In this document: positions 1 to 21,008 of the stretch, piece by piece
Layout: every line of letters begins with the position of its first letter
Position numbering within the stretch: position 1 is the first letter of the stretch
IMG/VR virus record: IMGVR_UViG_3300007559_000029
Location: 1 to 21,032 of that record
Reading direction: 5' to 3' (one strand)
Length of the DNA stretch: 21,032 nucleotides
Source: a virus
Made by a program: the position numbers and the translations under genes
The notes under the pieces: model-generated
What the model was told of the DNA's origin: nothing
Databases searched by the model: none
The model's input: the letters and a program-made list of their open reading frames with translations, nothing else

Positions 1-287
1 CATCCAATTTCAAATAAAGGATTATAGCTTGGAGATACCATTGGTAAATCTAAAGGTACAACCATTCCGTTATAGTCCCCATGAGTTCCAATGTCTGTGT
101 TTCTAATTAGATCTTCATCTTCTTCGTTTAATTCTACTTCTCCATTCTCATAAGCTTCTCTAGCTTCTGTAAATAAGTTAACAAATGCTTCAGAAGAATA
201 ACGGTATATGTTTTCATGTAGAGTTAAACCGTTATCGATGTGGTACTGTAAGCTTGGTAATCCTACTATTTCTCGTAGTTTAATCAT
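1..287 (-). CDS. Conserved phage protein of unknown function (N-terminal part, runs off window)
   Basis: An open frame on the minus strand begins with ATG at 287-285 and stays open to the window edge, giving about 95 residues (start MIKLREIVGLPSLQYHIDNG). It is acidic, with a run of Glu/Asp around residues 50-60, then a DIGTHGDYNGMVVPLDLPM stretch. The start overlaps the stop of the GIY-YIG gene by 8 nt, as expected for translationally coupled late genes, and codon use matches the neighbours. The pattern of a helical acidic segment followed by a 'DIG...VPLD.P' stretch resembles conserved hypothetical proteins that I recall from T4-like marine phages, but I cannot name a function. The C-terminus is missing because the window ends. 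Confidence 0.8.
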   Translation of the reverse strand, partial: MIKLREIVGLPSLQYHIDNGLTLHENIYRYSSEAFVNLFTEAREAYENGEVELNEEDEDLIRNTDIGTHGDYNGMVVPLDLPMVSPSYNPLFEIG

Positions 288-726
288 CTGTATCAGGTGT
301 TATAAAGTCTTTTCTATAAAATTTTCCGAGGACGTTATCGTTAATATAATTGTTTCTATATTCAAGTACCTCTTTAATAAATAGGTATTTAGTCTCATAA
401 TATGTAAGAAGTTTCTTTGATCTAACAAAACATAAGATTTGTTTAGTAAATTCTTCTTGCTTACCTTCTTTTATAAGGCCAACTATCTCTGCATGAGACC
501 CGAAATAGGTTTTCCAATCTGATTCTTTGACTATCTTTCGCTTTCTTTTCTGATCGGTTAGCGGAGGTAAAGTCCTGTTAAAATATAGTACTTTTTTTCC
601 TATATATTTTCTCCCTGTTGGAGTATGTGTTACTTCGTAAATAAAGCCAAAAGTGCCCTCAGGCATATCACTCATTTCAGTGATAATTCGGCCATCGTAA
701 ATCCATGACGGCATAGTAATTCCCAT
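280..726 (-). CDS. GIY-YIG family endonuclease-like protein
   Basis: 148 residues. The GIY-YIG signature is visible near the N-terminus as GFIY (27-30) and KYIG (40-43), with the usual spacing. It is followed by basic residues K44/K45 and R51, a basic loop (KRKRK, 60-64), the DWKTYFGS block (70-77) and a candidate catalytic Glu in YYETKY (E111). In known GIY-YIG nucleases these elements form a small alpha/beta core that cuts DNA with a divalent metal. Standalone phage members include Seg-like homing enzymes and uncharacterised nucleases; the 'W..Y.GS' and 'NDN.LGKF.RKDF' features fit a conserved standalone phage subfamily. No separate DNA-binding domain is visible, so it may not be a homing enzyme. 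An internal Met5 (MPSWIYDG) is an alternative start. It is the second-last gene of the late block, overlapping the next gene by 8 nt. Confidence 0.8.
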   Translation of the reverse strand: MGITMPSWIYDGRIITEMSDMPEGTFGFIYEVTHTPTGRKYIGKKVLYFNRTLPPLTDQKRKRKIVKESDWKTYFGSHAEIVGLIKEGKQEEFTKQILCFVRSKKLLTYYETKYLFIKEVLEYRNNYINDNVLGKFYRKDFITPDTDD

Positions 727-6944: not shown

Positions 6945-9900
6945 CTATGCCATACAAGCAAGTGCACATGTATTGAAAGAGCCGAATTGTGTTCCTAGTT
7001 CTAGAGCGACTCCTGAACTAAATGTTGCAGAATTTACTCTATATGCATATCCATCTGGACCAGTTGATGTTACGTAGAATTTATTTGGTATTGGTGGTGG
7101 GTTATTTACGTTAACCATAACATAGATTGTATCTATAGATTCGGTACAACTATTTACCCCGTTACAGGCGAATACATCTGCAAAGAAATAGTCATACTGA
7201 GGAGAGCTAGTCGGGCTAGGTGTAGTTGGTGCTGGAGTAACTGGTGCAGCGGTAGGACTAGGTGTTATTGGTGCTGGAGTAACTGGTGCTGGTGTTACTG
7301 GTGCTGGAGTAGTTGGTGCTGGAGTAACTGGTGCAGCGGTAGGACTAGGTGTCACGGGAGCAGGTGTCACGGGAGCAGGTGTTACTGGTGCCGGTGTCAC
7401 AGGGGCGGCTGTAGGACTAGGTGTCACGGGAGCAGCGGTAGGACTAGGAGTAGGGGCTGCGGTTGGTGCAGCGGTAGGACTAGGTGTTGGTGCGGCAGTT
7501 GGAGCAGCTGTAGGTGCAGGTGTTATTTGAGTTACTGTGAATGTGATAGTACAATCTCTAGGAATAGTGTTAGATTGGTTTATGAATGTTATCCTAAATG
7601 CTAACTCTGGTTGTGATCCTTTTTTAATTCTGTTTCCTCTATTTAATTCACCGTCCGTAATTTTAATTCTACTTCCACTTAACTCTCCATTAAATTTAGG
7701 TTCTTCGTAATTATGTCTAAAGGTCATAGCAGATCCAGAAGGAACTACAATTCTTTCCGAGTATGCTGTACTTCTCTCTACTAACTGTGTATAAGATCCT
7801 CCGTGAGTTCCTACCGTAAAAGCAGTATCTATTGACCCAGAATAGTCTTGGAATATAGTACTAACACTTACGTGCTTTGCTTTATTTCTTTCTAACTTAT
7901 GAGGTTTAATTATAATACCGGTAATAGCTGTTGATCTACCTGGTATAAAATCTTTAATGATTCTAAATAAAGCATTATCAAAAAAACGTATTAACCTAAT
8001 ATAATCCATTAGGTCATATCTATCTAGATTTCCTAGTATTACTTTACGATGTTTCTCTAATGCAGTGTATTCAGATTTATAAGAGTCTCTAGGGTCACCA
8101 ATATAGTCGTCTATGTTAAAGTTTGAAAAACCTAATACAGCACTTTGAGAAACTATATAATTATCTATATTCTTAGAAGGAGCTAATCCTACTTCAACAA
8201 AATTTAAGTCATCAGAGTACTCATATTCTCTTCTAACAATAGAAGTGTAATTTGATAATGCATCACCAGTAATAACTGTACCGTCATTATCTGTTCTTAA
8301 TTTTAAAGAAGAACTATGGTGTAGTTGTGTTGGTCCATAAAAACCTGGTCCTATTTTTTGACCGCCTGCAATACCTATTTCTAAAATCTGAGAAGGTATG
8401 CCGAATGAGTTTATTAAAGCTCTTAAACCTCTTTCAGTTCCTTTTGCTTTAGTTAATAAAGGTAAGTTGTGGTATATTCGCTTGTATACTTCTTTCTGGT
8501 AATTATCAAATGGCATTGGTTGTAAATACGCATTTGTAGAACCTGAGGTAATTATTTTATATTCGTTTATTTGTTCACTTCCGGATATATAAGACTCACC
8601 TATAAATGCTCCAAATATAGATTCTAAGTTAAAGTTACTATTATATAACTTAACTCCAAAATTTTCTAGAGTAGTTCTTACTAAGTCTTTAGATATGCCG
8701 AAGTTAATTCTATTATCAGCATCATACTTATCACTTACAGCTTTTTGATATATCCATATATTATCAAAATGTTGTGCGAGCATATTAATAAAAAGGAGAG
8801 CAGGATTGTTACCTTGATCTTCTCTTAAAAATACTGGTAATGTATTCGTTAATGCATTTAAGTTACTTACATCAAAATTAGAAGCAATTTCTAATTGACC
8901 ACTATACCAGTTTGATGCTTGTGCTGTGGAACTTGCCTGGTTTTTAAATGGTCTTGTAGTGTTAGATTTAGGCCAGCTATTAGATCCACTTTCAAAATAT
9001 AAAAATCTATCGTAATGGTCAAAGTTATTTACAATACCTTCAATTAAAGATTCATAATAATCTCTACTACCCGTAATACCGAATCTTATGTACCCTGTAT
9101 TACTTAGAGTTTGCAAAGAAGTTTCGTATGATTTTATTAAATCTACTTTATATTTAAAATTTCTTAATCTCTCTTCTGCTGAAGAAAAGTTTATAAAGTC
9201 TGAATAGTTGCTATGGTCTATGCTAATTTGAGCGCTGCTCTCTTCAAATAAAGAGTATAACTCGTAATAAGAACTAGTAACCGGGTAGCTAAATAGTTCA
9301 TTATAATTAAAAAAACCTGTAGGGTTATTATTATCCTCTACTAATTCTATATCAAAATTAGGTCCTTTTAAATGAGGAAATACTATTTCATCCGGTATTA
9401 CTTCTGTATCGATTTCAAACACTACAGAGTCTGATACTAACTCAACTACTCTAAACGTATCTTTAAATTCAAAATCTACCGGTAAAGGTTCATATAGCTT
9501 TATAGCTAAAGCTTTTCCTCCTCTATAATCTATAAGATCAATATTAATACCTATCAATAACCTGTTATCTCCAAAATTTAATCTGAAATCTTGAAAATAA
9601 GAAAGACTTTCTAGTTTTCTTTTAATTTCAGAAGTAAATTTAATTAGATCTTGTAAAGATACTTCATTACTTAACGCTAAAATTTCTGTTCTATCAGACG
9701 ATAATTCTTCTATGAAAAAGTTACCTTCAAAAATAAAATTATCGTTGCTATATAGATTATTTAAGAAGTTATAGAGTAAACTAACTTGTCCATAACTGTA
9801 TCCTAATTGGCTAGCGTCTGCTTCTGGGGATATATTTAGCTCAGATATTTTACCTGATTCGTATTGTGTAAATGTAATATGATTAAACTCGGGAAAGTAG

Positions 9901-10091
9901 GAATCAACAGAAAATAACCGCTGATCATCTACTCCATATACGTGTAACTCTACTGTATGTTTTTCAGGTTTAAAATTACTATTCAGGTAAAAGTTATCTA
10001 CTAAATTCCTATCTTTTTCATTTAGGTTTTTAGTCACTATACCTAATTGACTAGGAACTCCTGTGGATACTATGTAATTAGTTTTTGACAT
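6945..10091 (-). CDS. Large baseplate/tail protein (gp7-sized) with Pro/Thr/Ala repeat and Cys-containing tip
   Basis: 1048 residues, the largest gene here. Residues 1-850 are non-repetitive; around 425-500 is LLFINMLAQHFDNIWIYQKA and a long conserved-looking stretch, and around 545-567 a LPLLTKAKGTERGLRALINS segment followed by FGIP. A 'LP.L.KAKGT...L..L...FGIP' motif recurs in large baseplate-associated proteins of T4-like environmental phages. Residues about 855-963 are a PTAAP/PSPTAAP/VTPAP repeat. The last 85 residues form a separate domain with paired cysteines (CNGVNSC and, at the very end, CALACMA). Position after gp6 and size (T4 gp7 is 1032 residues) suggest a wedge protein equivalent to gp7, carrying an extra surface-exposed stalk and tip. 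That equivalence is inferred, not shown by similarity. Confidence 0.65.
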   Translation of the reverse strand: MSKTNYIVSTGVPSQLGIVTKNLNEKDRNLVDNFYLNSNFKPEKHTVELHVYGVDDQRLFSVDSYFPEFNHITFTQYESGKISELNISPEADASQLGYSYGQVSLLYNFLNNLYSNDNFIFEGNFFIEELSSDRTEILALSNEVSLQDLIKFTSEIKRKLESLSYFQDFRLNFGDNRLLIGINIDLIDYRGGKALAIKLYEPLPVDFEFKDTFRVVELVSDSVVFEIDTEVIPDEIVFPHLKGPNFDIELVEDNNNPTGFFNYNELFSYPVTSSYYELYSLFEESSAQISIDHSNYSDFINFSSAEERLRNFKYKVDLIKSYETSLQTLSNTGYIRFGITGSRDYYESLIEGIVNNFDHYDRFLYFESGSNSWPKSNTTRPFKNQASSTAQASNWYSGQLEIASNFDVSNLNALTNTLPVFLREDQGNNPALLFINMLAQHFDNIWIYQKAVSDKYDADNRINFGISKDLVRTTLENFGVKLYNSNFNLESIFGAFIGESYISGSEQINEYKIITSGSTNAYLQPMPFDNYQKEVYKRIYHNLPLLTKAKGTERGLRALINSFGIPSQILEIGIAGGQKIGPGFYGPTQLHHSSSLKLRTDNDGTVITGDALSNYTSIVRREYEYSDDLNFVEVGLAPSKNIDNYIVSQSAVLGFSNFNIDDYIGDPRDSYKSEYTALEKHRKVILGNLDRYDLMDYIRLIRFFDNALFRIIKDFIPGRSTAITGIIIKPHKLERNKAKHVSVSTIFQDYSGSIDTAFTVGTHGGSYTQLVERSTAYSERIVVPSGSAMTFRHNYEEPKFNGELSGSRIKITDGELNRGNRIKKGSQPELAFRITFINQSNTIPRDCTITFTVTQITPAPTAAPTAAPTPSPTAAPTAAPTPSPTAAPVTPSPTAAPVTPAPVTPAPVTPAPVTPSPTAAPVTPAPTTPAPVTPAPVTPAPITPSPTAAPVTPAPTTPSPTSSPQYDYFFADVFACNGVNSCTESIDTIYVMVNVNNPPPIPNKFYVTSTGPDGYAYRVNSATFSSGVALELGTQFGSFNTCALACMA
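7203..7528 (-). repeat. Pro/Thr/Ala-rich coding tandem repeat (PTAAP / VTPAP units)
   Basis: About 325 nt inside the 1048-residue protein encode roughly 108 residues made of PTAAPT, PSPTAAP and VTPAP units. At DNA level the block GGTGCAGCGGTAGGACTAGG recurs (near 7249, 7331 and 7466, with variants near 7405 and 7432), interleaved with GTCACGGGAGCAGGT and GGTGCTGGAGTAACT units. Both synonymous and amino-acid variation between units shows repeated expansion and drift. The repeat keeps the reading frame. Such Pro-rich stretches usually make an extended, flexible or glycosylatable stalk. Confidence 0.85.
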
Positions 10092-17956: not shown

Positions 17957-18691
17957 TTATAAATTTTTAATTAAGTTTGATAAACCTTCTGATGAATTAA
18001 CAGGGCGTCCTGTAGAGGCTTTAGCTTTTTGTACTTTAGGTTCTGTAACTCCTCCTTTATTCTTCCATAAATCATATTCTACCTTAGAAGCCATAAAGTC
18101 TGCTGAGTGTAAAATATTTACAATGTTAGTTTTCATTCGAGAGTCTGGGTTGTGACTAAAGAAATAAGCTTCGTTAGCTTTATCAAACACGCCATCGTGT
18201 AGTCTAATACCTAAATACTCATTATGAGATAATTTAATACCGAATCTCTGTAAGATATAAAGAGAACGGTCCGGAATAAGCATAAACGAGATTTCAGGAT
18301 TAGGAGTATACATTTCATGTAACTTATCTTGTCTCCATTTATCTGTTTGAGGAATATAACAATCCCTATCTCCGTCACCAATTTTACCTAGATCATGGAA
18401 GATAGCTGCCATTACCAACTCTTCATCGGTAAAGTCAATAGAAGCTCCCATAGACTGCCATAATTCTTTTTGTTTTACGGCACATTGTACAACTCTATTA
18501 ACATGGTCAATGTATCCACCCGGAAAAGCATTATGGTACCATGATTTACTACTAGCAGGAGCCATTACCATATGTTCGGCTAACGTTTCTACTAGAGCTA
18601 ATACGCTATTTTTACGATCACCACCAATGTAATGGTTAATAATCTTAATATGTTTATCCCAATTTGATTGGATTTGTTCGGCACTTAACAT
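17957..18691 (-). CDS. HD-domain metal-dependent phosphohydrolase
   Basis: 244 residues. HD-superfamily residues are visible in order: H63 in GGYIDHV, H99-D100 in IFHDLGK, a later His (H156 or H165 in LSHNEYLGIRLHDG) and D198 in LHSADFMASK. The 'YHNAFPGGYIDHV' segment resembles the HD region of YhaM-type 3'-5' exoribonucleases, but no OB/nucleic-acid domain is present. Family members hydrolyse phosphate esters of nucleotides or nucleic acids with Mn or other divalent metals; the substrate here cannot be told. The C-terminal ~35 residues are basic (KVQKAKASTGRPVNSSEGLS). It heads a short group with the membrane protein and sigma factor, just after a repeat-bearing AT-rich leader. Confidence 0.8.
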   Translation of the reverse strand: MLSAEQIQSNWDKHIKIINHYIGGDRKNSVLALVETLAEHMVMAPASSKSWYHNAFPGGYIDHVNRVVQCAVKQKELWQSMGASIDFTDEELVMAAIFHDLGKIGDGDRDCYIPQTDKWRQDKLHEMYTPNPEISFMLIPDRSLYILQRFGIKLSHNEYLGIRLHDGVFDKANEAYFFSHNPDSRMKTNIVNILHSADFMASKVEYDLWKNKGGVTEPKVQKAKASTGRPVNSSEGLSNLIKNL

Positions 18692-18725
18692 AACTTAGTT
18701 TTTTTTATAGGATTCCCCTGCTTTA

Positions 18726-18733
18726 TATTTATA
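18726..18733 (-). promoter_or_regulatory. T4-type late promoter candidate (TATAAATA) upstream of the HD gene
   Basis: The minus strand reads TATAAATA at 18733-18726, an exact match to the T4 late consensus recognised by gp55-type sigma factors. Initiation about 6-8 bases downstream would give a leader of roughly 25-30 nt before the HD start codon at 18691. The genome is so AT-rich that a few chance copies are expected, and several misplaced ones occur elsewhere, so the support comes from position and from the gp55-like gene nearby. Confidence 0.35.
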
Positions 18734-18740
18734 TCTATAT

Positions 18741-18800
18741 ATTTAATATCTTATATATTTATTTAATATCTTTATATTATATCTAATATCTTATATATTA
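18741..18800 (-). repeat. Three 20-bp AT-rich tandem direct repeats
   Basis: Three units begin at 18741, 18761 and 18781 with exact 20-base periodicity. The consensus is ATTTAATATCTTATATATTT; all three share TAATATC in the same phase, and units differ at a few positions. A partial inverted copy (GAAGATATATA) follows at 18803. They fill the 153-nt spacer between two minus-strand genes. A 20-bp period is near two helical turns, so the sites would sit on one face of the DNA, as for cooperatively bound operators or iterons. Confidence 0.75.
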
Positions 18801-18844
18801 TTGAAGATATATAAAAAAACGCAGAATAGCCACTCTTTTGTAAA

Positions 18845-19385: not shown

Positions 19386-19412
19386 AAATTTTATATTCTA
19401 ATCAACTCTTAG
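19305..19412 (+). CDS. Possible small ORF (35 aa) over the GC-rich island
   Basis: A plus-strand ATG at 19305 opens a 35-residue frame to TAG at 19410-19412 (starting MKELGSVPAKYLKKAEGPTR, then IARILTRKFYILINS), overlapping the end of the 19398 gene by 15 nt. It is basic and uses GC-rich codons (GCG, CGC, GCC, CCC) unlike its neighbours. A minus-strand frame of 34 residues (19375-19271, starting MRAMRVGPSAFLRYFAGTL) covers the same DNA. GC-rich DNA lacks stop codons by chance, no ribosome site is visible, and neither frame is recognised, so both may be artefacts. Confidence 0.15.
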   Translation: MKELGSVPAKYLKKAEGPTRIARILTRKFYILINS

Positions 19413-19877
19413 CTTTAATTCTTGCAATAAACTATCAACATTGTAGTCGTAGATAGGAGGAGTCATTGTATTCCTCAATAAATCATCAAAAGATTTTATT
19501 ACAGCACACCTCTCATAGTATTCTTTCTCTTGATAATAATAGAGTAGGTGGTCGAGGGCGTGGAATACTCCCATCTTATCATATTCTTCGGTAATGACAT
19601 AGATGTTTTCAAACTTTTTAAGGTTAATCCTAAGGAGATAGGCGTAGAGGCGGTTATAAAATTGTTCCTTAACAGTCTCTCTTACAGATTCATACTGCTC
19701 CTTATATCTCATCATGTACATTCCATCGATGATAGAGTAATTCTCTAACCCTCTCACCACCATACCCATTAATACATACGGGTTTTCGAACAAATGTTGT
19801 ATGTTATGCTCTTCATATATAGTCTCATCAGAGGCATTGAAGATGTTAAAAAGTTTATTCGGGTCTAATTTGTTCAT
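19398..19877 (-). CDS. Unknown phage protein, Tyr-rich and helical
   Basis: 159 residues, unusually rich in Tyr, Met and acidic residues with helical periodicity (RYKEQYESVRETVKEQFYNR; HALDHLLYYYQEKEYYERCA). The start MNKLDPNKLFNIFNASDETI is preceded by AT-rich DNA. No membrane span, signal peptide or catalytic motif is visible. It is the first minus-strand gene after the strand switch and is followed by the GC-rich spacer, so it may be transcribed from the divergent region and end before the late block. Such small helical proteins are common in T4-like genomes and mostly uncharacterised; I make no functional call. Confidence 0.65.
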   Translation of the reverse strand: MNKLDPNKLFNIFNASDETIYEEHNIQHLFENPYVLMGMVVRGLENYSIIDGMYMMRYKEQYESVRETVKEQFYNRLYAYLLRINLKKFENIYVITEEYDKMGVFHALDHLLYYYQEKEYYERCAVIKSFDDLLRNTMTPPIYDYNVDSLLQELKLRVD

Positions 19878-19894
19878 TTACTCGCATATAATAG

Positions 19895-19923
19895 TTGCTT
19901 CTTTGATAAATATATCGTATATT
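19895..19923 (+). promoter_or_regulatory. Candidate sigma-70-like promoter in the divergent region
   Basis: In the 97-nt divergent gap, TTGCTT (19895-19900), a 17-base spacer and TATATT (19918-19923) give a plausible sigma-70-type arrangement for the plus-strand genes starting at 19975. A one-mismatch late element, GATAAATA, lies between them (19905-19912). The region is so AT-rich that both may be chance, so this is a weak call based mainly on the need for a promoter where the strands diverge. Confidence 0.2.
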
Positions 19924-19974
19924 ATATAGAAGTATAAGTATTAATATGCTGAAAGGCAACTAAATTAAAGTATT

Positions 19975-20241
19975 ATGGTAGAAGTGTTATTTTTATTACT
20001 AGGAGCTACTCTAGCTTTTGTTTATCTACAACATGAGCAGAAGAAAGATCTGGAAAAGAGGGTTAAGTCTTTAGAGTCAGATTACCTAAGTTTATGTGAT
20101 GGTCTAAGAGATGTAGAAAGAAATGTATTTGAATCCTTAACCTCTCAGGTTCATTCTCTAAAGGCAGATATGTGGCAACACCTACATGCTCATGATTGTG
20201 AGGTACGTGATAAGAAAATTAAAGATATATTAAAAGATTAG
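19975..20241 (+). CDS. Small single-span membrane protein with coiled coil
   Basis: 88 residues. Residues 3-19 (EVLFLLLGATLAFVYLQ) form an N-terminal membrane span, followed by charged heptad-like helix (HEQKKDLEKRVKSLESDYLS; DGLRDVERNVFESLTSQVHS), consistent with a membrane-anchored coiled coil. The last part contains two His clusters (HLHAHD). The start ATG at 19975 lies downstream of the divergent region; the leader is A/T-rich (TAAATTAAAGTATT). It resembles in form the minus-strand protein at 17656 and the plus-strand protein at 20757. A spanin-like or envelope role is possible but not shown. Confidence 0.65.
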   Translation: MVEVLFLLLGATLAFVYLQHEQKKDLEKRVKSLESDYLSLCDGLRDVERNVFESLTSQVHSLKADMWQHLHAHDCEVRDKKIKDILKD

Positions 20242-20281: not shown

Positions 20282-20734
20282 ATGATCTACGATGATCTCT
20301 CTAACCTTCATTACTACTTTAAAGGAAGGTCTAATTTCTCTTCGATACAAGACTATCTCTCTAGTCTATCAAGCGATTCTGAAGACGGTACTCGGGACCT
20401 CGGCTATTGTACGGTTATTATCTCTTCTTATGTGACGGGTCACTCCTCTCTGTGTGAGTCTCACGAAATCTATGACGATCTCCATATGGTCTTAGAAGGT
20501 CAAGAAGCGGTAGAGTACTACAACCCCAAGTTAAACAAGGTAAAGTTTAACTATGATGAAGAAAAAGACGTTACTCTCTACTATAAAGAAGCAATGCCTA
20601 CTGTTATTCTTCCTCTTTATAATCGAAAATTCTGTTATCTTCCGGCAGGAGAAGTACATTCACCCGGTCTACCGCATAGAAAAGGCCCTTCATTAGTGAA
20701 GAAAGTGGTAGTCAAGATTAAGGCCACTGATTAA
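20282..20734 (+). CDS. YhcH/YjgK/YiaL family (DUF386) sugar-anomerase-like cupin protein
   Basis: 150 residues, close to the usual ~150 for this family. The ligand and metal region is clear: CESHEIYDDLHMVLEGQEAV (58-77), which aligns with the 'LHEQYIDIQ..L.GEE' motif of E. coli YhcH/NanQ and EbgC-type proteins, giving His61, Tyr64 and Asp66 as the shared positions. The end CYLPAGEVHSPGL (118-130) followed by KKVVVKIKA matches the 'F.PGE.H.PG' and terminal 'KKVVVK' of the family, with Glu124 and His126 as likely metal ligands. NanQ catalyses sialic-acid anomerisation; others act on sugar or sugar-phosphate anomers. A phage copy could act on host or capsule sugars, a role that is inferred. Confidence 0.85.
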   Translation: MIYDDLSNLHYYFKGRSNFSSIQDYLSSLSSDSEDGTRDLGYCTVIISSYVTGHSSLCESHEIYDDLHMVLEGQEAVEYYNPKLNKVKFNYDEEKDVTLYYKEAMPTVILPLYNRKFCYLPAGEVHSPGLPHRKGPSLVKKVVVKIKATD

Positions 20735-20756: not shown

Positions 20757-21008
20757 ATGTTCACACTAGTATTAGTAACTGTCGTAGCCATTGTCGCTAT
20801 CATAGGCAGTATAAAGATGTATAACCAGATAAAGAATATCCAGATAGATATATCAGCGATAAAGAAAGACAATGAAAGACGAATTGAATTCAATAAGCAA
20901 AGAAACGAAAAACGAAAAGAATTTAGAACCAATAGAACAGACATCGATAAGACCCTTGAAAGAGCCGATGCTATGTCGAATGTGTCTAAGGCCAATAAAA
21001 GAGGATAA
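20757..21008 (+). CDS. Small single-span membrane protein with basic coiled coil
   Basis: 83 residues. A membrane span at residues 3-20 (TLVLVTVVAIVAIIGSIK) is followed by a strongly basic, charged helix (NIQIDISAIKKDNERRIEFN; RNEKRKEFRTNRTDIDKTLE) and a short end (SNVSKANKRG). The leader ATAAAAAACAAAATCAA is A-rich with no Shine-Dalgarno sequence. It lies 22 nt after the YhcH-like gene, so the two are probably one transcript. A second frame overlaps its last third and runs off the window. Type II topology is likely; function unknown. Confidence 0.65.
   Translation: MFTLVLVTVVAIVAIIGSIKMYNQIKNIQIDISAIKKDNERRIEFNKQRNEKRKEFRTNRTDIDKTLERADAMSNVSKANKRG

What the first reader, a model, noticed from the sequence alone, without database searches (positions are those of the whole stretch)
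20282..20734. Phage-encoded YhcH/NanQ-like (DUF386) sugar-anomerase-type protein
The sequence shows both signature blocks of the YhcH/YjgK/YiaL family, including the conserved His/Tyr/Asp and Glu-x-His positions and the terminal KKVVVK. In bacteria these proteins handle sialic-acid or other sugar anomers. I do not know of this family as a usual T4-like phage gene. It sits with small membrane proteins next to a strand switch, an accessory setting. It could modify surface sugars, feed nucleotide-sugar pathways, or counter a glycan-based defence.
Basis: partly seen in the sequence, partly recalled or inferred. Interest (0 to 1): 0.65.

Follow-up and report, generated by a model that had tools for sequence, protein, structure and literature searches.

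The report
Phage gene for YhcH-like sugar anomerase
A lineage of T4-like viruses, whose known relatives infect marine flavobacteria, carries a conserved gene for a YhcH/DUF386 protein, a small metal-binding bacterial family whose best-studied member opens sugar rings; I found this family in no other viral lineage, but its substrate and benefit to the virus are unknown.

Summary
The 150-residue ORF at 20282-20734 (+) matches Pfam DUF386 end to end (79.8 bits, E 2.7e-22), passes the TIGR00022 cut-off, and its predicted structure (pLDDT 92) matches YjgK and copper-bound YhcH (TM 0.84). The family's conserved residues are kept, with His68 where E. coli NanQ has Gln; other bacterial members also have His there. 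It scores far below the N-acetylneuraminate-anomerase model (46 versus 160 bits), so it belongs to the family but is not shown to be NanQ.

It is a resident phage gene, not a chimera: twelve IMG/VR contigs from eleven metagenomes carry it in the same place, between two small membrane-protein genes beside a strand switch, with a conserved divergent intergenic region and purifying selection (median dN/dS 0.18). Thirty-eight related phage records without it include Flavobacterium phage immuto. Pattern scans of 2.9 million viral contigs, a viral fold library and 50,697 phage records gave no other convincing viral occurrence. A sister contig carries a glycosyltransferase, sulfation, methylation and halogenation genes downstream.

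Most likely it is a cytosolic metal-dependent sugar ring-opening enzyme serving phage or host glycan chemistry. Activity is inferred from the family; substrate and pathway are open. New member of a known kind.

The parts
20282..20734 (+). DUF386 (YhcH/YjgK/YiaL) protein, 150 aa; conserved E59, H61, Y64, D66, H68, E124, H126, K141, K145; predicted metal-binding cupin-fold sugar anomerase
   Evidence: Pfam 79.8 bits; TIGR00022 48.6 bits; alignments; model pLDDT 92; Foldseek TM 0.84 to 9jrr and 1s4c; median dN/dS 0.18
19975..20241 (+). 88-aa protein with a hydrophobic N-terminus followed by a charged, coiled-coil-like tail; always directly upstream of the DUF386 gene
   Evidence: ORF; synteny in all 12 contigs, 62-100% identity; no family above threshold
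20757..21008 (+). 83-aa protein with a hydrophobic N-terminus and charged tail; always directly downstream where the contig extends that far
   Evidence: ORF; synteny; only weak hits, e.g. Rz-like spanin phrog_739 E 0.009
19878..19974 (.). divergent intergenic region with a strongly conserved stretch around 19912-19961 (TATATTATATAGAAGTATAAG ... CTGAAAGGCAACT), a probable promoter region for the plus-strand island
   Evidence: alignment of 10 contigs; single copy in window and in sister contig; promoter role inferred
19398..19877 (-). conserved phage gene (159 aa, unknown function) that begins the minus-strand structural block; left neighbour of the island
   Evidence: homologues 30-51% in relatives lacking DUF386
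17957..18691 (-). HD-domain phosphohydrolase, conserved phage gene used as a synteny anchor
   Evidence: PF01966 22.7 bits; 63% identity to Flavobacterium phage immuto
11547..13370 (-). baseplate wedge protein; shows the host record is a T4-like myovirus related to Immutovirus
   Evidence: phrog_219 E 2.8e-20; 61% identity to immuto baseplate wedge protein

Best explanation
This is a genuine, functionally maintained phage gene for a DUF386 protein. SHOWN computationally: full-length family membership, cupin-type fold matching YhcH and YjgK, retention of the family's conserved residues, fixed position in one phage lineage, purifying selection. INFERRED from E. coli YhcH (PMC8141875): the protein binds a transition metal such as Zn, and the metal acts as a Lewis acid that opens the ring of a sugar or sugar acid, so the open chain or the other anomer becomes available to a downstream enzyme. 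SPECULATIVE: in infected cells it works on a free sugar used to build or remodel glycans, either the host's or those made by the phage's own glycosyltransferase, sulfation and methylation genes. I put family membership at about 0.97, an active metal-dependent sugar ring-opening or anomerase enzyme at about 0.55, and a glycan-building role at about 0.3.
For: PF04074 full-length match; TIGR00022 above cut-off; model with mean pLDDT 92, pTM 0.85; Foldseek top hits are all the DUF386 entries (YjgK 9jrr TM 0.84, YhcH-copper 1s4c TM 0.84, HP1029 4tsd TM 0.85); conserved positions kept; the profile of phage plus bacterial homologues finds 1jop/1s4c at E 5.8e-28; 12 contigs, same gene order, 75-100% identity; median dN/dS 0.18. 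E. coli and H. influenzae YhcH contain Zn and E. coli YhcH has Neu5Ac anomerase activity (PMC8141875). A sister contig of the same lineage encodes a GT2 glycosyltransferase, TylF methyltransferase, APS kinase, a sulfotransferase-like protein, Trp halogenase and 2OG oxygenase-like proteins roughly 10-27 kb downstream of DUF386.
Against: Only 20-31% identity to characterised or annotated bacterial members and a very long stem branch (3.0 changes per site), so the substrate cannot be transferred. Far below the NanQ equivalog cut-off. Nearest neighbours are small membrane proteins, not sugar enzymes. Phages lacking DUF386 also have GT2 glycosyltransferases, so the sugar context does not require it. 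Only one contig is long enough to show the downstream region. One of twelve contigs (L004) has an internal stop at codon 127, and L007 has His for Tyr64.
Confidence: 0.55

Rival explanations
1. The protein is not an enzyme on its own but a binding or regulatory subunit that activates or modulates a host or phage sugar enzyme, in the manner annotated for EbgC, the beta subunit of evolved beta-galactosidase.
For: EbgC is a DUF386 protein annotated as an enzyme subunit, and the phage protein shares its His in place of the NanQ Gln. No substrate-producing partner lies next to it.
Against: The phage protein keeps the E-x-H and downstream H motif that EbgC has partly lost (EbgC has TGH and EAY).
Confidence: 0.18
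2. A counter-defence protein or host-signalling modifier: the cupin acts on a small signalling sugar or nucleotide-sugar, or alters surface glycans so that the cell resists superinfection or its defence is muted.
For: Accessory strand-switch island with its own conserved upstream region, found in one lineage only, flanked by small membrane-anchored proteins.
Against: No PADLOC hit for the three island genes; the family has no known defence link in the papers searched; nothing else supports it.
Confidence: 0.1
3. Catabolic helper: the enzyme speeds use of a host or environmental sugar (a sialic, keto-deoxy or uronic acid) by host enzymes during infection, a classic auxiliary metabolic gene.
For: E. 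coli YhcH improves growth on Neu5Ac (PMC8141875); E. coli nanQ lies in the nan operon and yiaL in an operon with 2,3-diketo-L-gulonate genes.
Against: NanQ equivalog cut-off not met; no aldolase, kinase or transporter for a sugar recognised nearby.
Confidence: 0.15
4. Assembly chimera or recent contamination with bacterial DNA.
For: GC3 of the gene (0.39) exceeds most structural genes in the window (0.16-0.25).
Against: Twelve contigs from eleven metagenomes share the junctions; two neighbouring genes have GC3 as high (19398-19877 at 0.43, 20757-21008 at 0.37); sequences have diverged to 84% identity within the lineage.
Confidence: 0.01

Closest known systems
YhcH/NanQ of Escherichia coli and Haemophilus influenzae (N-acetylneuraminate anomerase)
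   Same: Full-length DUF386 match, fold (TM 0.84 to 1s4c), E-x-H, Y, D, second-motif H and the terminal lysines
   Different: About 22% identity to E. coli NanQ; 46 bits against the 160-bit NF040884 cut-off; His68 instead of Gln; no sialic-acid genes recognised nearby; in a phage
YjgK/TabA (9jrr, Salmonella)
   Same: Best Foldseek hit; TM 0.84 over the full length
   Different: About 21% identity to E. coli TabA; E. coli TabA is a bacterial chromosomal gene annotated as a toxin-antitoxin biofilm protein
HP1029 of Helicobacter pylori (4tsd)
   Same: DUF386 fold, TM 0.85
   Different: Longer protein (about 180-195 residues), 20% identity, function unknown
Flavobacterium phage vB_FspM_immuto (Immutovirus)
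   Same: Baseplate wedge 61% identical, HD hydrolase 63%, shared gene order in the structural block
   Different: Lacks DUF386 anywhere in its 160 kb genome

Membership tests
DUF386 / YhcH-YjgK-YiaL (PF04074, TIGR00022) | Full-length profile match above curated cut-off | tested here: met
   79.8 bits vs 26.5; 48.6 vs 45.5
DUF386 / YhcH-YjgK-YiaL (PF04074, TIGR00022) | Conserved E-x-H-x-x-Y-x-D block and later H with terminal lysines | tested here: met
   E59, H61, Y64, D66, H126, K141, K145 aligned with E. coli paralogues; Y64 is H in the L007 variant
DUF386 / YhcH-YjgK-YiaL (PF04074, TIGR00022) | YhcH-type cupin fold | tested here: met
   Model pLDDT 92; TM 0.84-0.85 to 9jrr, 1s4c, 4tsd
DUF386 / YhcH-YjgK-YiaL (PF04074, TIGR00022) | Bound transition metal (shown for YhcH) | not testable with these tools
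   Residue conservation only; PMC8141875 reports Zn in E. coli and H. influenzae YhcH
NanQ N-acetylneuraminate anomerase (NF040884) | Equivalog score of at least 160 bits | tested here: not met
   46.1 bits
NanQ N-acetylneuraminate anomerase (NF040884) | Association with sialic-acid catabolism genes | tested here: not met
   None recognised in the window or in 33 kb downstream on G003; the rest of the genome is not available
NanQ N-acetylneuraminate anomerase (NF040884) | Anomerase activity on Neu5Ac | not testable with these tools
   Needs an assay
T4-like Immutovirus relatives (for the host record) | Homologous baseplate and structural block in the same order | tested here: met

The most novel reading that the evidence does not exclude
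A phage lineage has repurposed a YhcH-type ring-opening enzyme into its own glycan-tailoring pathway (with phage glycosyltransferase, sulfotransferase and methyltransferase genes), making or masking surface sugars during infection; this would be a new kind of phage function for the family.
Probability: 0.15. Interest if true: 0.65.

Novelty: new member of a known kind. Interest (0 to 1): 0.4.

Why it matters
DUF386 is described as a bacterial family, absent from archaea and eukaryotes (PMC8141875), and in what I read only YhcH has a demonstrated activity. A single phage lineage that keeps one under purifying selection is, in the collections searched, the only convincing viral occurrence. It points to a sugar-chemistry step that matters during infection of (probably) flavobacteria, hosts known for elaborate surface glycans (general knowledge, not tested here), and gives a compact protein for testing what the wider family does.

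Tried and rejected
Chimera or contamination: rejected by synteny in 12 contigs. NanQ orthology: rejected by the equivalog cut-off. Prophage or other-phage occurrence: tblastn of TabA, NanQ and two bacterial homologues against 50,697 phage records hit only 500-690 kb Salmonella scaffolds filed as phage, 1.5-4.8 kb Escherichia and Salmonella fragments, and short faecal 'Bacteriophage sp.' scaffolds of 4-8 kb (two opened are marked UNVERIFIED), none convincing. A TabA-based scan of viral contigs found nothing. A first, very broad alignment (A2) could not be used for pattern scans. Bacterial neighbourhoods of the fetched homologues (Campylobacterota, Scalindua, Gastranaerophilales) gave no consistent pathway; in the four Gastranaerophilales-type loci looked at the gene lies near a protein that I read by eye as a transketolase subunit. 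These homologues were fetched largely through a C-terminal KKVVVKIK pattern, so they are not an unbiased set of nearest relatives. No tRNA and no Rfam family. RNA folding of the intergenic region is not above shuffles. The literature searches found no viral YhcH/DUF386. Flavobacterial genomes could not be reached, so the donor is unresolved.

Full report
Observation. The ORF at 20282-20734 on the + strand is real and matches DUF386 along its whole length with 79.8 bits and TIGR00022 with 48.6 bits against a cut-off of 45.5. It has no PHROG match. Aligned with the four E. coli paralogues and five plasmid-borne members, E59, H61, Y64, D66, G73, E75, D96, H126, P128, K141, V143 and K145 are invariant or nearly so. 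E. coli NanQ has Gln where the phage has His68; His also occurs there in EbgC, in a Ligilactobacillus protein and in an Enterococcus casseliflavus protein whose gene lies between a sodium:solute symporter and an exo-alpha-sialidase gene.

Structure. AlphaFold2 with 39 phage and bacterial sequences gives a model with mean pLDDT 92.2 and pTM 0.85, made of two N-terminal helices and a set of beta strands. Foldseek against the PDB places the DUF386 entries on top: YjgK 9jrr, YhcH with copper 1s4c, HP1029 4tsd, with query TM-scores of about 0.80-0.85, followed at a distance by other cupin-fold proteins. Against the library of viral protein models the best matches reach only about TM 0.5 and are generic cupin or JmjC proteins. 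So the fold is that of the family, and no described viral protein in that library is a close structural relative.

The carrier is a phage. The window holds baseplate wedge, tail and fibre-like genes; the 607-aa wedge protein is 61% identical to that of Flavobacterium phage immuto and 37-42% to two large phages. An HD hydrolase at 17957-18691 is 63% identical to immuto. IMG/VR holds twelve further contigs, from eleven metagenomes by their identifiers, that encode the protein at 75-100% identity. In all of them the order is the same: minus-strand structural block, divergent intergenic region, 88-aa gene, DUF386, and an 83-aa gene where the contig reaches that far. The intergenic region is strongly conserved. 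Pairwise dN/dS has a median of 0.18, range 0.08-0.29. One contig, L004, has an internal stop at codon 127.

Distribution. The gene is absent from immuto (complete, 160 kb), from a 162 kb relative and from 36 other related records searched with the Pfam model, several of which cover the homologous neighbourhood. Three profile or motif scans of 2.9 million viral contigs, including the loose motif E[SA]Hx[KIN]YxD[IL][QH], returned only this lineage. tblastn of the window protein against 50,697 phage records found nothing; bacterial family members hit only records that look bacterial or are short unverified scaffolds. These scans are pattern-limited, so rare divergent viral members could be missed.

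Origin. On a tree with 31 bacterial proteins the phage proteins form one clade (100/100) on a stem of 3.0 changes per site, with no supported sister. The set is biased by how homologues were found, and flavobacterial genomes could not be searched. GC3 of 0.39 is above most structural genes, but neighbouring accessory genes are similar. Acquisition is therefore old or followed by fast divergence, and the donor is unknown.

Context for function. On the longest sister contig (G003, 38 kb), whose genes shared with the window are 93-100% identical, the DUF386 gene is followed by about 33 kb of mostly minus-strand genes. These include a GT2 glycosyltransferase, two DUF6734 proteins, a TylF-type methyltransferase, a calcineurin-like phosphoesterase, an APS kinase, a sulfotransferase-like protein, a Trp halogenase, 2OG-Fe(II) oxygenase-like proteins and an NlpC/P60 protein. 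APS kinase and TylF were seen only in this record among nine tested, but GT2 enzymes also occur in DUF386-negative relatives. This makes glycan chemistry plausible without proving a link.

Mechanism. E. coli YhcH is a Zn protein that speeds conversion between the ring forms and the open form of Neu5Ac, and free divalent metals do the same; the authors propose Lewis-acid ring opening (PMC8141875). The phage protein keeps the conserved positions, so metal-assisted ring opening of some sugar is the best-supported inference. Which sugar, and for which enzyme, is not established. The NanQ-specific model is not met and I recognised no sialic-acid gene nearby.

Verdict. A real, conserved, phage-resident member of a known bacterial family; rare and apparently confined to one viral lineage; function inferred at the level of chemistry only.

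Noticed in passing
window 7222-7519 (within ORF 6945-10091, -): The 1048-aa tail-region protein contains a Pro/Thr/Ala-rich repeat (TPAPTAAPTPSP-like) encoded by overlapping 15-, 27-, 30-, 36- and 87-base tandem arrays; probably a flexible linker that varies in length.
   Followed up: no
window 280-726 (-): SegE-like GIY-YIG endonuclease (PF19835, 102.8 bits) next to the tail genes; its best PHROG family is labelled 'NAD synthetase', which looks like a misannotation of that family.
   Followed up: partly
window 19878-19974: Divergent intergenic region conserved in ten contigs (GTATATTATATAGAAGTATAAG ... CTGAAAGGCAACT) and single-copy in the window and sister contig; AGTTGC and GCAACT at its ends form an inverted repeat, possibly an operator or promoter.
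   Followed up: partly
window 18722-18801: AT-rich imperfect tandem repeats (7, 14 and 20 base units) between the HD hydrolase and the 18845-19216 gene.
   Followed up: no
sister contig G003 (loci L107, L108): Phage cluster with Trp halogenase (357 bits), SET-domain protein, sulfotransferase-like, APS kinase, TylF methyltransferase, 2OG oxygenase-like proteins and NlpC/P60 protein; possibly a tailoring pathway in a probable flavobacterial phage.
   Followed up: partly
L001, L103, L104, about 4 kb downstream of DUF386 (-): A shared reading-frame segment (RSP-RRSGGALSSPTKSTRANLTSVM) precedes different genes in different contigs (one an apparent methyltransferase); not a tRNA by ARAGORN, perhaps a noncoding or recombination element.
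   Followed up: partly
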